A stretch of 64,000 nt of DNA from an uncultured Massilia sp. (GTDB taxonomy: Bacteria > Pseudomonadota > Gammaproteobacteria > Burkholderiales > Burkholderiaceae_D), in assembly GCF_913773735.1 (NCBI RefSeq), contig NZ_CAJYEB010000014.1, positions 1-64,000 on the forward strand, read 5' to 3'. The notes under the pieces were generated by a model, which was given only the letters and a program-made list of their open reading frames with translations, was not told the origin of the DNA and did not search any database. The position numbers and the translations under genes are program-made. Shown here piece by piece: positions 1 to 13,049 of the stretch. Within the stretch, counting starts at the first letter, position 1. The number at the start of each line of letters is the position of its first letter.

Positions 1-127
1 TGACTATATCGAGATGTTCTACAATCCAAAGCGGCGGCACAGCTTCAGCAATGACCTGTCGCCGGTCGAGTATGAGAAGCAGTATTTTCAGCGGCTGTCG
101 AGTGTCTAGAAAACTCGTGGCGATTCA
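1..127 (+). mobile_element. Right end of an IS3-family insertion sequence (element continues beyond the window start)
   Basis: The first 109 bases encode the tail of an IS3-family transposase. The 25 bases at 103-127 begin TGTCTAGAAAAC and end in TTCA, which has the form of an IS3-group right terminal inverted repeat and overlaps the transposase stop codon, as is usual in this family. The left end and the main part of the element lie outside the window, so the subgroup and completeness cannot be judged. The element stops 28 bases before the first visible CRISPR repeat, so it sits inside or at the edge of the array. Confidence 0.8.
2..109 (+). CDS. IS3-family transposase (OrfB), C-terminal fragment
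   Basis: Only the last 35 residues are in the window. They contain IEMFYNPKRRHSFSNDLSP followed by VEYEKQY, the conserved C-terminal end of the IS3/IS150-type DDE integrase domain; the glutamate of IEMFYN belongs to the region near the last catalytic acid. The frame is open from base 2 and stops at TAG 107-109 inside the terminal inverted repeat. Nothing indicates a broken gene here, but the start and the first two catalytic residues are not visible. It would act as the recombinase that moves the element now lodged next to the CRISPR array. Confidence 0.85.
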   Translation, partial: DYIEMFYNPKRRHSFSNDLSPVEYEKQYFQRLSSV

Positions 128-155
128 GGAAAAGGTCTCGATGGCGAGGCGCAGG

Positions 156-303
156 GTTCACTGCCGTGTAGGCAGATCAGAAAAGGAATACGTCGATGTT
201 CGTCGCGACTCGTTTGTTCACTGCCGTGTAGGCAGCTCAGAAAAGAGATAACGGGAGATCCCCCATGCAACGAGCGTTCACTGCCGTGTAGGCAGCTCAG
301 AAA
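156..303 (+). CRISPR. Type I-F CRISPR array, leader-distal end, 3 repeats and 2 spacers visible
   Basis: Three 28-bp repeats start at 156, 216 and 276 with an exact 60-bp period, so both spacers (184-215 and 244-275) are 32 bp. The repeat begins GTTCACTGCCGTGTAGGCAG and ends CTCAGAAA, which differs little from the classic type I-F (Ypest) repeat; its inner stem CTGCC/GGCAG is intact. The repeat at 156 has A instead of C at its position 21. No repeat follows 303, so this is the end of the array. By type I-F convention the leader and the cas genes would lie upstream, beyond the insertion sequence. The 28 bases at 128-155 look like the remainder of a further spacer. No cas gene is in the window. 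Confidence 0.95.
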
Positions 304-439
304 AGCAGCCTCCGCTACATTACTGAAATAGACCCGACTTTCGCCGGTACTGGCGCAGCGCTCAAACGTGCAAGCGCTGATGCGACTCGTGCATTGACTG
401 ATCGCGCGCCCCTAACACACTACCGTACAATCAGCCGCT
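304..439. other. Leader-distal flank of the CRISPR array
   Basis: This stretch separates the last repeat from the stop codon of the hydrolase gene on the other strand. It has no AT-rich leader character and no further degenerate repeat. A plus-strand frame stays open across most of it but has no start codon of its own and no recognisable family, so I do not call a gene. Confidence 0.5.
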
Positions 440-1504
440 TTATTTGCACTCGCCAACCCGCTCCTTGAGCAAGCGATACTGCGCCGCCAGCATCGGCACA
501 TTCGGATCGTGCCCGGTCCGCTCGACCAGCACGAATTCCTTCCGGGGCGCCTTGATCGTATCGAAGTAGCGCTTCGCCTGCGCCGGCATGGTCACCAGAT
601 CCTGCGCCCCCTGCACCATGTACACGGGCATCGCAAAGTCCGGTCCCAGTTTGTACAGGTCGAGTTTCGACGCCATGCCGTCGCCGTGCATGCCCACGAA
701 CTGCAGCCACGAATAATCCTCGCCGGCCTCGTACGCTTTCTCGTAGGACGGGGTCGCGTACACCGGTGACGGCGTCCACCACGACTTCGGCGCCGGCTCC
801 GTGCTCATCGCCTCGTACTTGCGCGTCACGCGGCGCAGGATGCCCGGGTTGCGCGGGTCGGTCCAGGGCGGCGGGCCCAGCTTCTCGAGTTTCTCGACCG
901 CGTCCTTGTCGCCGGCCGCGCGCGCCTGCGAGAGCGTGGCGTCGTAGCTGTCGCGCTGGGCGAAACCCTGCACCAGCTGGCCGGTCGTGACGAAGGCGCA
1001 GTACGACGCCGGGCTGCCCTTGGCCATGTGGACGCCCAGCGCCGACGACCACGAGCCGCCCATCAGGATCACCTGGCGCTTGCCGAAGCGCCCGGCGGCG
1101 TAGCGCGTGACGGCGATGCCGTCGTCGCGCAAGAGGTCGATCGTCAGCGGGGTGTCCTCGTCGATCGGCTTGCGTTCCCAGGTCTTGCCGGCGCCGCGCT
1201 GGTCCCATTGCACGATCGTGAAGTCCTGTTCCCAGGCCTTGTAGATGTTGTCGGCGTAGGGCGTCAATGGATTGCCGGGACCGCCATGCACCAGCAGCAG
1301 GACGGGGTTGGCGCAGCTCGCGCCCTTGATGCGCACCCATTGCTCGATGCCGCCGATGGTCACGTAGCCCTGTTCGTCGACGGGCTTGCCGGGCGTGGTG
1401 CAGACGGTGTCGGCGAGGTCGTCGGCGGCCCGGACGGCGCCATGGGCCAGCAGGAGGCAGCTCAGGGAGAGCAACGGGGACAGCAGGCGGGACTGGCGTG
1501 GCAC
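440..1504 (-). CDS. Exported alpha/beta hydrolase, proline iminopeptidase-like
   Basis: The product (354 residues) starts with a hydrophobic signal peptide ending near HGAVRA, so it is probably periplasmic or secreted. HGGPG at about 73-77 is the oxyanion-hole motif of the S33/proline iminopeptidase branch. GGSWS at about 149-153 supplies the nucleophile Ser151 (the usual last Gly is Ser), with an acid in GAQD and a histidine in TGHDPN near the C-terminus. It should cleave an ester or an N-terminal residue from a peptide; the substrate is unknown. I chose the GTG at 1504 because AAAGGAG sits five bases upstream and it places the signal peptide at the N-terminus; an ATG 30 bases further upstream would put that ribosome site inside the gene. 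It is divergent from the M64 peptidase gene. Confidence 0.85.
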   Translation of the reverse strand: MPRQSRLLSPLLSLSCLLLAHGAVRAADDLADTVCTTPGKPVDEQGYVTIGGIEQWVRIKGASCANPVLLLVHGGPGNPLTPYADNIYKAWEQDFTIVQWDQRGAGKTWERKPIDEDTPLTIDLLRDDGIAVTRYAAGRFGKRQVILMGGSWSSALGVHMAKGSPASYCAFVTTGQLVQGFAQRDSYDATLSQARAAGDKDAVEKLEKLGPPPWTDPRNPGILRRVTRKYEAMSTEPAPKSWWTPSPVYATPSYEKAYEAGEDYSWLQFVGMHGDGMASKLDLYKLGPDFAMPVYMVQGAQDLVTMPAQAKRYFDTIKAPRKEFVLVERTGHDPNVPMLAAQYRLLKERVGECK

Positions 1505-1637
1505 GGTGACTCCTTTGCATGCGTAATCCACCATCGTACCGATTGCCAGGAAGATAAGTCAATGCATATTGCATCATCCGGTCCAGGCGCCAGCGCCGGG
1601 GCTACAATGCCGGCTTACTCATCTCCCGAGGAGCGCC

Positions 1638-8992: not shown

Positions 8993-9099
8993 GCTGTTAT
9001 CTAGGTAATTCGGAGGCGAATGCCTGCGCATTCTATCTTGTCGCGCGGAAAATAAGGGACCGCATGCATGCGGGAGACGGCACGATCTTGAACAATAAA

Positions 9100-9115
9100 C
9101 TGTATGGAAATACAG
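9100..9115. promoter_or_regulatory. LexA-type SOS operator between parE and the amidotransferase gene
   Basis: CTGTATGGAAATACAG is a perfect CTGT-N8-ACAG palindrome whose inner bases also fit the CTGTATATATATACAG consensus (TAT on the left, ATA on the right). It lies 108 bp upstream of parE and 160 bp upstream of the divergent gene, in an AT-rich stretch suited to promoters. Which gene it controls cannot be told from sequence. Confidence 0.65.
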
Positions 9116-9275
9116 TATTTTTGCCTGCCTGACGCAAGTTTGCAAGCGATATGAGGATCGTGGCGCCCGCCCGCAAATCCGGTTTGCTGCCGAGCAGCGA
9201 CAGGTGGCCGTGCCAAAACGACATTTTTTACACATCCGAATCGTGCGCGGCCGTGGGCGAGGATATATTGGAATC

Positions 9276-10253
9276 ATGGCAGAGGACAATGACAAGCGCG
9301 ATACTGCCGGCCCGCCGCTGGACGGCCATTCAGGCCCTCCGCGGGTGCCGGACCGGCGTGCCAATGGAGGTGCATCGCGCTACCTCCGCTCCGGCGACAC
9401 GCCCCTGAACCTGGCGGGACGGGTACTGCGGTCGCGCTGGCGCGCGCTGTCCGAGCGCTTCAGCCGCGACTTCATGCGGCGCACGCTGCGCATCGGCGTG
9501 TCGGCGCGCATCTTCCACCCGGAGTCGGGCTCGACGGGCCTGCGCAGCAAGAACCTGCAATACCTCGAAGAGTCGATCGCCCAGTGGGTCATGTCGCGCG
9601 ACGTGCTGGTGTTCATGGTCCCGACCGTGAATACCAACGGCCTGCTCCATCCCAGCAACATCACGATGCGCCACTACGCGCGCCACCTGGACGGCCTTGT
9701 GCTGCAGGGCGGCGCCGACGTCTCGCCGATGACCTATTCGGAGTCGCCCACCCGCCCCGAGTGGAACGGCGACCGCGCGCGCGACGTCTACGAGCTGGAA
9801 CTGCTGCACGAGTTCGTCGATGCCGGCAAGCCGGTGCTGGGCATCTGTCGCGGCTGCCAGTTGATCAACGTGGCCTTCGGCGGCAGCCTGTACCAGGACG
9901 TGGCGACCAACCTGCCGGGCTCGCAGCCGCACGTGCACGACATCTACGATGCGCACCGCCACGACATCGTGTTCCCGCCCGGCTCGTCGCTGGGCAAGAT
10001 GTTCCCCAACGTGTCGCGCGCGGTCGTCAATTCGATCCACCACCAGGCGGTCAAGGAACTCGGCCGCGACATCCACATCGAAGCGATGTCGGAACCCGAC
10101 GGCGTCGTCGAGGCGATCCGCTACCAGCGCGCGCCCTTCGTGATGGGCCTGCAGTGGCACCCGGAATTCCACCGCGCCACCGGCGGCGACCTGCTCGACT
10201 GCACGCCGGTGCTCGACGAATTCCTGCGCGCGGCGCGCGAGACGCGGCTCTGA
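9276..10253 (+). CDS. Gamma-glutamyl-GABA hydrolase-like class I glutamine amidotransferase (PuuD family, C26)
   Basis: The 325-residue product has a variable N-terminus of about 80 residues and then a class I amidotransferase-like domain. The nucleophile elbow is GICRGCQLINVAFGG (Cys nucleophile), and the His-Glu pair is in MGLQWHPEF near the C-terminus, so the catalytic triad is complete. FGGSLYQD and HHQAVKELG are typical of the PuuD/peptidase C26 branch, which cleaves gamma-glutamyl bonds such as gamma-glutamyl-GABA in polyamine breakdown. No other puu gene is nearby, so the substrate is open. The ATG at 9276 is chosen because upstream residues are Arg/Gly-rich non-conserved sequence. It is divergent from parE across a LexA-type site. 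Confidence 0.87.
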   Translation: MAEDNDKRDTAGPPLDGHSGPPRVPDRRANGGASRYLRSGDTPLNLAGRVLRSRWRALSERFSRDFMRRTLRIGVSARIFHPESGSTGLRSKNLQYLEESIAQWVMSRDVLVFMVPTVNTNGLLHPSNITMRHYARHLDGLVLQGGADVSPMTYSESPTRPEWNGDRARDVYELELLHEFVDAGKPVLGICRGCQLINVAFGGSLYQDVATNLPGSQPHVHDIYDAHRHDIVFPPGSSLGKMFPNVSRAVVNSIHHQAVKELGRDIHIEAMSEPDGVVEAIRYQRAPFVMGLQWHPEFHRATGGDLLDCTPVLDEFLRAARETRL

Positions 10254-10320
10254 TTCCAGTCGGCAAGCGTGCTTCACCGGTGGGCTTGTTCCTTTACATT
10301 CGAATGGAAAGGAGACCACG

Positions 10321-10812
10321 ATGAACCACGCCCCGGATCGGCAGGAAACCCGTATGCCCGCGATGAAGTACAGCACGTTCGGCTGGATGATACTGGCCGG
10401 CACCGTCATCATGTATGGTCTGATGTACCTGAACGTCTATGCGGCGGACCACATCTTCTTCAGCCAGACGCGCGCATGGATGGCCCTGATCATGGGCGCC
10501 ACGATGGCCGTGGTGATGTTGGCATTCATGTGGAACATGTATCCGAACAAGGCCGCGAACGTCGGCATCCTGCTCGCCAGCGCGGCCGTGTTCGGCGCAT
10601 CTCTGTGGCTCGTGCGCAGCCAGGCGACCGTCGACGACGTCGCCTACATGAAGGCGATGATTCCGCATCATTCGATCGCCATCCTGACCAGCGAACGCGC
10701 CGGCATCCGCGACCCGCGCGTGCGCCGGCTGGCCGACGGCATCGATGCGACGCAGAAGAAGGAAATCGCCGAAATGAAGTTCCTCATCCAGGACATCGAG
10801 CGCCGCCACTGA
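10321..10812 (+). CDS. DUF305 membrane protein
   Basis: The 163-residue product has three hydrophobic segments in its first 100 residues (about 20-42, 50-72 and 78-95) and then a short DUF305 region with the hallmark MKAMIPHHSIAILTSERA followed by a C-terminal helix. DUF305 proteins are ferritin-like helical domains often found with metal-handling genes; the biochemical role is not established. The start is well supported by AAAGGAG just upstream. It stands alone, with a Fur box and a small unknown gene downstream on the same strand. Confidence 0.85.
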   Translation: MNHAPDRQETRMPAMKYSTFGWMILAGTVIMYGLMYLNVYAADHIFFSQTRAWMALIMGATMAVVMLAFMWNMYPNKAANVGILLASAAVFGASLWLVRSQATVDDVAYMKAMIPHHSIAILTSERAGIRDPRVRRLADGIDATQKKEIAEMKFLIQDIERRH

Positions 10813-12934: not shown

Positions 12935-13049
12935 CTATGCTTTTCCATCCTCGACAGGCATCATTCGACAACGACGAGTCTAGGGACAAGGGTTTTATCG
13001 GGTCAATCTTGATTCCGGAAATCGATATGAAGATAAATCCATTTGCACG

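What the first reader, a model, noticed from the sequence alone, without database searches (positions are those of the whole stretch)
103..303. IS3-family element next to, and probably inside, a type I-F CRISPR array
The IS right end stops at 127 and the next repeat starts at 156. The 28 bases between are 4 short of the fixed 32-bp spacer, which fits insertion near the start of a spacer. The element would cut these last two spacers off from the leader-proximal array and from any leader promoter, leaving them silent unless the IS end drives transcription.
Basis: partly seen in the sequence, partly recalled or inferred. Interest (0 to 1): 0.5.

Follow-up and report, generated by a model that had tools for sequence, protein, structure and literature searches.

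The report
IS-truncated second CRISPR array remnant
A jumping gene has replaced most of the control region and the front end of a bacterium's second CRISPR immune-memory array and left a small, probably silent stub; this is a known kind of decay, here reconstructed across a break in the genome assembly.

Summary
The window starts at a contig end with the last 127 bp of an IS3-family element, then 28 bp, then three 28-bp type I-F repeats with two 32-bp spacers. The rest lies on contig C2: cas3 and csy1-4 of full length, a frameshifted cas1, a 28-repeat array and, at its start, the left end of the same IS upstream of cas1. Two of three IS copies pair by 3-bp target duplications; the left-over ends are C2 and C14 (the window's contig), with none. 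In 7 of 10 same-genus loci fetched, the outer flanks of C2 and C14 are neighbours. So C2-IS-C14 is one locus: cas genes between two divergent arrays. Against the IS, on the cas1 side, lies GACCCTTTTTT, which marks the outer start of I-F leaders (129-133 bp before the first repeat in 58 of 75 array starts); no repeat lies there. The IS thus sits at a deletion from inside the leader to inside a spacer. The stub cannot gain spacers; only IS read-through could express it. IS-disrupted arrays, and this idea, are in print (PMC2886076). Interest is low.

The parts
1..127 (+). Right end of an IS3-family element, cut by the contig start; orfB C-terminus 2-109 with stop 107-109; terminal inverted repeat about 115-127 (TGAATCGCCACGA on the - strand)
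   Evidence: Same end on contigs C21 and C34; inverted repeat matches the left ends on C1, C2 and C42; rve_2 match of the orfB tail; a full-length relative is 1229 bp with HTH_Tnp_1 and rve domains
128..155 (+). 28-bp remainder of a truncated spacer (4 bases short of the usual 32)
   Evidence: Length against 31-33 bp in the main array
156..183 (+). Type I-F CRISPR repeat 1, one substitution at repeat position 21
184..215 (+). Intact spacer, 32 bp, no protospacer found
216..243 (+). Type I-F CRISPR repeat 2, consensus
244..275 (+). Intact spacer, 32 bp, no protospacer found
276..303 (+). Type I-F CRISPR repeat 3, consensus, last repeat of the remnant
   Evidence: no further repeat in C14 within 3 mismatches
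304..445 (.). Non-repeat end of the CRISPR island; homology to same-genus genomes without the island resumes at 445-479 in the 7 syntenic loci
   Evidence: a degenerate terminal repeat here is not supported
440..1534 (-). Alpha/beta hydrolase gene bordering the CRISPR island (chromosomal backbone)
   Evidence: syntenic in relatives

Best explanation
The window start is the leader-distal stub of a second, cas1-side CRISPR array of a probably horizontally acquired type I-F locus. An IS3-family element lies at a deletion that runs from about 31 bp inside the leader to 4 bases inside a spacer (an adjacent deletion made by the IS, or recombination between two IS copies). It removed about 100 bp of leader and all leader-proximal repeats. 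Shown: the repeats, the IS ends, the neighbouring contig, the leader-start motif next to the IS, and the lack of repeats and of a target duplication. Inferred: the deletion event and its extent. The stub is frozen, because it has no leader next to a repeat for spacer addition and cas1 is frameshifted. At most two crRNAs could be made from it, by Csy4 from the intact effector operon, and only if transcription starting in the co-oriented transposase genes reads through. I think it is mostly silent.
For: Three I-F repeats with I-F-sized spacers. Cas3f and Csy1-4 above NCBIfam cut-offs on C2. C2:1-127 is the left end of the same IS, upstream of cas1. Exact left ends C1, C2, C42 and right ends C14, C21, C34; C42-C21 share TCG and C1-C34 share AAG, leaving C2 (TCT) and C14 (GGA). 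In 7 of the 10 same-genus loci that I fetched (of 30 loci returned), the C2 outer flank lies next to the C14 outer flank. GACCCTTTTTT (up to 1 substitution) lies 129-133 bp before the first repeat in 58 of 75 array starts of relatives, against 4 of 1500 shuffles; it is exact at -131 in the main array and exact, in the right orientation, 31 bp before the IS on the cas1 side. Among 31-base windows of 80 kb of own sequence, both strands, only these two score that high against the relatives' leader profile. Divergent arrays upstream of cas1 occur in 4 of 80 Cas1f loci, 3 of them with this motif.
Against: A missing duplication alone proves little: of 4 copies of this IS in relatives with both ends found (three of 1229 bp, one of 1183), 2 lack a 3-bp duplication. 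Beyond the 11-base motif the 20 retained bases resemble the relatives' leaders only weakly (181 of 5000 shuffles score as high), and my first, plain alignment of the stretch with the main leader region was not significant (7 of 100 shuffles). A short contig lying between two IS copies could have been dropped from the assembly.
Confidence: 0.82

Rival explanations
1. Two insertions with the array front still present: C2 leader start - IS copy A - the rest of the leader and some repeats, missing from the assembly - IS copy B - C14. The stub is then separated, not orphaned by deletion.
For: Draft of 52 contigs in which IS copies collapse; C2 and C14 flanks carry different trinucleotides, as two separate insertions would.
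Against: No other repeat of this type within 3 mismatches in any of the 52 contigs; exact IS ends are balanced 3 to 3; genome 99.84% complete. The missing piece would have to be short enough to have been dropped; the assembly's smallest contig size was not checked.
Confidence: 0.12
2. The array never extended further: a leaderless mini-array beside which the IS happened to land, so that the 28 bp is plain flanking DNA.
For: No repeat beyond the IS; the last repeat is perfect, not degenerate as at the end of the main array; only 8 of 80 relatives have any array of this repeat upstream of cas1.
Against: The leader-start motif stands against the IS on the other side, in the right orientation; 28 bp is just under the 31-33 bp spacer range.
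Confidence: 0.03
3. The stub is the old end of the main array, moved to the other side of the cas genes by an IS-mediated inversion.
For: Same repeat in both arrays.
Against: The main array keeps its own degenerate terminal repeat at C2:10700 and meets conserved backbone at 10757-10795 with no IS end found there. No spacer is shared between the arrays. A second leader start exists.
Confidence: 0.02

Closest known systems
E. coli ATCC 8739 CRISPR2 disrupted by an IS element (Touchon and Rocha 2010, PMC2886076; passages seen)
   Same: An IS inside a CRISPR array separates distal spacers from the leader; the paper already suggests that the IS may provide signals that enhance transcription of the distal spacers.
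   Different: There the array is described as disrupted, with 32 repeats; here a three-repeat stub remains and the leader-side repeats are gone. The repeats here are of type I-F.
Haloquadratum walsbyi HBSQ001 CRISPR remnant with a MITE inserted in a spacer (PMC3119063; passages seen)
   Same: A mobile element inside a spacer of a decaying CRISPR remnant.
   Different: There the leader is kept and the cas genes are lost; here most of the leader is lost and the effector cas genes are kept.
Type I-F locus of Pseudomonas aeruginosa PcyII-10, CRISPR1 and CRISPR2 separated by six cas genes (PMC7344871; passages seen)
   Different: Here the cas1-side array is reduced to three repeats next to an IS, and cas1 is frameshifted.

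Membership tests
Type I-F CRISPR-Cas | 28-bp I-F repeat with hairpin and spacers near 32 bp | tested here: met
   Rfam CRISPR-DR4, spacing, 5-bp-stem hairpin in each of the three repeats
Type I-F CRISPR-Cas | Cas3f (Cas2-3) and Csy1-4 | tested here: met
   All five above NCBIfam cut-offs, on contig C2
Type I-F CRISPR-Cas | Intact Cas1 | tested here: not met
   cas1_YPEST matches in two frames, C2:520-1140 and 1131-1436; could be an assembly error
Type I-F CRISPR-Cas | Complete leader next to the array (for this array) | tested here: not met
   IS at 127; only the outer start of a leader remains across the IS. The main array has a complete leader.
IS3 family insertion sequence | OrfA (HTH_Tnp_1) and OrfB (rve integrase core) | tested here: met
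   In a full-length relative, L203; the orfB tail in the window matches rve_2
IS3 family insertion sequence | Terminal inverted repeats and short target duplication | tested here: met
   Inverted repeats on the six ends; 3-bp duplication at two other copies in this genome; absent at the copy in the finding

The most novel reading that the evidence does not exclude
The IS has taken over from the lost leader: transposase transcription runs through the right end and makes crRNAs from the two stranded spacers, so that old immune memories are expressed in step with IS activity while the array itself can no longer grow.
Probability: 0.12. Interest if true: 0.4.

Novelty: new member of a known kind. 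Interest (0 to 1): 0.2.

Why it matters
It is a clear case of how an IS erodes one array of a two-array I-F locus while the effector genes stay intact. It also shows that a CRISPR fragment at a contig end can be placed by target-duplication pairing, synteny in island-free relatives and a conserved leader-start motif. It does not change how CRISPR or IS elements are understood.

Tried and rejected
Degenerate terminal repeat after 303: rejected; the best alignment score is reached by 517 of 1000 shuffles, and 339-366 folds no better than shuffles.

Leader remnant between IS and cas1: a plain local alignment with C2:8601-9078 (which includes the end of csy4) scored 24, reached by 7 of 100 shuffles, and the other strand 17, reached by 85 of 100; blastn found nothing convincing in the 90 loci compared (80 Cas1f loci and 10 same-genus loci; best E 0.46). 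I first dismissed it on that ground. A second copy of the inner main leader (C2:8940-9078) was not found elsewhere in the genome, apart from a 17-base match with E 4.6. A 53-aa frame in the stretch has no Pfam match.

Protospacers: none found. Exact 20-22-base parts of the three spacers: no match in viral contigs for any of the 3. Whole spacers (the truncated one as 28 bases) with up to 3 mismatches in 392 genomes of the family: only the array itself, for each of the three. Phage records: for the first full spacer 5 records, best 72% of the query at 91% with E 0.9; for the second none; the truncated spacer was not tried there. The main array gave only weak phage matches, best E 0.5, so there was no positive control. 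Plasmid search with 128-335: 38 records with a match, none covering 80% of the query; in the 15 shown the matches span query positions 22-181, which hold the repeats; not inspected further.

Outward promoter at the IS right end: no sigma-70-like site on the + strand in 1-500; one weak site on the - strand; three terminator-like sites, all on the - strand. Only the last 127 bp of this IS copy are in the window, so its transposase promoter could not be read here.

Spacer sharing between the two arrays: none seen. Paper searches; passages seen in PMC8148099, PMC3119063, PMC7344871, PMC2886076 and PMC6360697; no paper was read whole.

Full report
What is in the window. The window is the start of contig C14 of a 5.88-Mb draft genome in 52 contigs. 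Bases 1-127 are the right end of an IS: the same bases open contig C21 and, less the first, C34, and the sequences part exactly after 127. The frame 2-109 ends in an IS3-type OrfB tail (stop 107-109; Pfam rve_2). A full-length relative in a same-genus genome is 1229 bp long and encodes HTH_Tnp_1 and rve domains. Then come 28 bp, and three repeats at 156, 216 and 276 that pass the Rfam CRISPR-DR4 threshold. No further repeat within 3 mismatches follows on C14.

The rest of the system. The repeat, within 3 mismatches, occurs 30 times in the genome: 3 on C14 and 27 on C2 at 9079-10667; a degenerate 28th on C2 lies at 10700. C2 also carries cas1, cas3, csy1, csy2, csy3 and csy4 upstream of that array; cas3 and csy1-4 score above the NCBIfam I-F cut-offs. 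cas1 matches its family in two overlapping pieces in different frames, so spacer acquisition is probably dead unless this is an assembly error. Of 62 genomes of the genus searched only this one has a type I-F cas1, so the locus was probably acquired horizontally.

Where the other side of the IS is. C2 begins with 127 bp of the left end of the same IS, pointing away from cas1. Exact left ends open C1, C2 and C42, and exact right ends C14, C21 and C34. A fourth left end, one mismatch off, lies inside C22 at 12964-12988 and belongs to a cut-off copy; diverged ends open C22 (right) and C35 (left), and their flanks do not match each other. For the exact copies the flanking bases pair C42 with C21 (TCG) and C1 with C34 (AAG), leaving C2 (TCT) and C14 (GGA). 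By my own arithmetic, with equal base frequencies, two such matches among nine possible pairs arise by chance about 4 times in 1000; I did not test those two pairs by synteny. For C2 and C14 synteny is independent proof. I fetched 10 of the 30 loci returned for the hydrolase flank. In 7 of them C2 sequence from 10757-10795 on lies beside C14 sequence from 445-479 on, with about 50 bp to 7.4 kb between; in the other 3 only the hydrolase gene matched. So the I-F island sits between a cyanophycinase-like gene (named by eye) and an alpha/beta hydrolase gene, and C2, IS and C14 are consecutive.

The leader. In the 80 best Cas1f loci (of 576 found), 75 array starts have 250 bp upstream. In 58 of the 75 the word GACCCTTTTTT, with at most one substitution, begins 129-133 bp before the first repeat; in shuffled upstreams it occurs in 4 of 1500. 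After csy4 it overlaps that gene's end, but it also stands before 3 of the 4 divergent cas1-side arrays (L127, L131, L137; not L165), so it belongs to the leader. In the own main array it is exact at -131. On the cas1 side of the IS it is exact too, in the orientation of a leader reading away from cas1, and begins 31 bp before the IS. In 525,402 bases (both strands) of own and same-genus sequence it occurs 3 times, these two included. Scored as 31-base leader starts, these two are the only windows at that level in 80 kb of own sequence on both strands. The 20 bases after the motif add little (181 of 5000 shuffles score as high). The motif lies 361 bp from Cas1 codon 13; in L127, L131 and L137 the distance is 108, 107 and 1030.

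What that implies. In chromosomal order the locus reads: main array (transcribed outward) - csy4 to cas1 - first 31 bp of a leader - IS - 28 bp of a spacer - two more spacers - hydrolase gene. About 100 bp of leader and every repeat before the cut spacer are gone, and no repeat of this type lies elsewhere in the assembly besides C2's own array. The simplest account is a deletion with the IS at its edge. The missing target duplication agrees but is weak alone, since 2 of 4 comparable copies in relatives lack one. Divergent upstream arrays are in the minority: 4 of 80 loci, with 4 more in the other orientation and 65 with repeats downstream of cas1 (only repeats within 6 mismatches were counted, and some contigs end early).

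How it works now. Inferred: without a leader beside a repeat and without an intact Cas1 the stub cannot grow. Csy4 could cut its repeats, since all three keep the hairpin; the substitution in repeat 1 is at position 21, just after the hairpin, where by recalled knowledge the crRNA 5' handle begins. The truncated spacer has lost its upstream repeat and can give no proper crRNA. Transcription could only come from the IS, whose transposase genes read toward the stub; no promoter-like site was seen on the + strand in 1-500. No target of any of the three spacers was found.

What is known. An IS inside an array, and the idea that it may drive distal spacers, is described for E. coli ATCC 8739 (PMC2886076, passages); a MITE inside a spacer of a CRISPR remnant for Haloquadratum walsbyi (PMC3119063, passages); two arrays around I-F cas genes for P. 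aeruginosa (PMC7344871, passages). My searches showed no account of this very locus. It is a new example of a known kind and deserves a low score.

Noticed in passing
L047 (C2) 484-1436: cas1 of the type I-F locus is split into two overlapping pieces in different frames, while cas3 and csy1-4 are of full length; spacer acquisition is probably lost in the whole locus.
   Followed up: partly
L047 (C2) 8948; C2 - strand 31 bp before the IS; array starts in L121-L200: A word GACCCTTTTTT marks the outer start of type I-F leaders at 129-133 bp before the first repeat in 58 of 75 array starts. Whether this is described was not searched.
   Followed up: partly
L047 (C2) 10400-10727: The main array decays towards its trailer end: repeats at 10400, 10461, 10521 and 10580 carry 1-2 substitutions and the one at 10700 is degenerate, whereas the last repeat of the stub in the window is perfect.
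   Followed up: no
C2:10757 / C14:445 junction; L105-L108, L112-L114: The island's insertion site is variable in the genus: the gap between the two conserved genes ranges from about 50 bp to 7.4 kb. By eye the inserts in L105 and L113, the only two read, look like ordinary regulatory, transport and enzyme genes.
   Followed up: partly
L203 1545-2675: In relative G042 a copy of the same IS lies next to a reverse transcriptase frame that looks like a group II intron protein (by eye).
   Followed up: no
G000 C22:1-127, C22:12964-12988 and C35:1-127: Diverged ends of a related IS open contigs C22 (81% identical right end) and C35 (left end); a lone left end of a cut-off copy lies at 12.98 kb on C22.
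   Followed up: no
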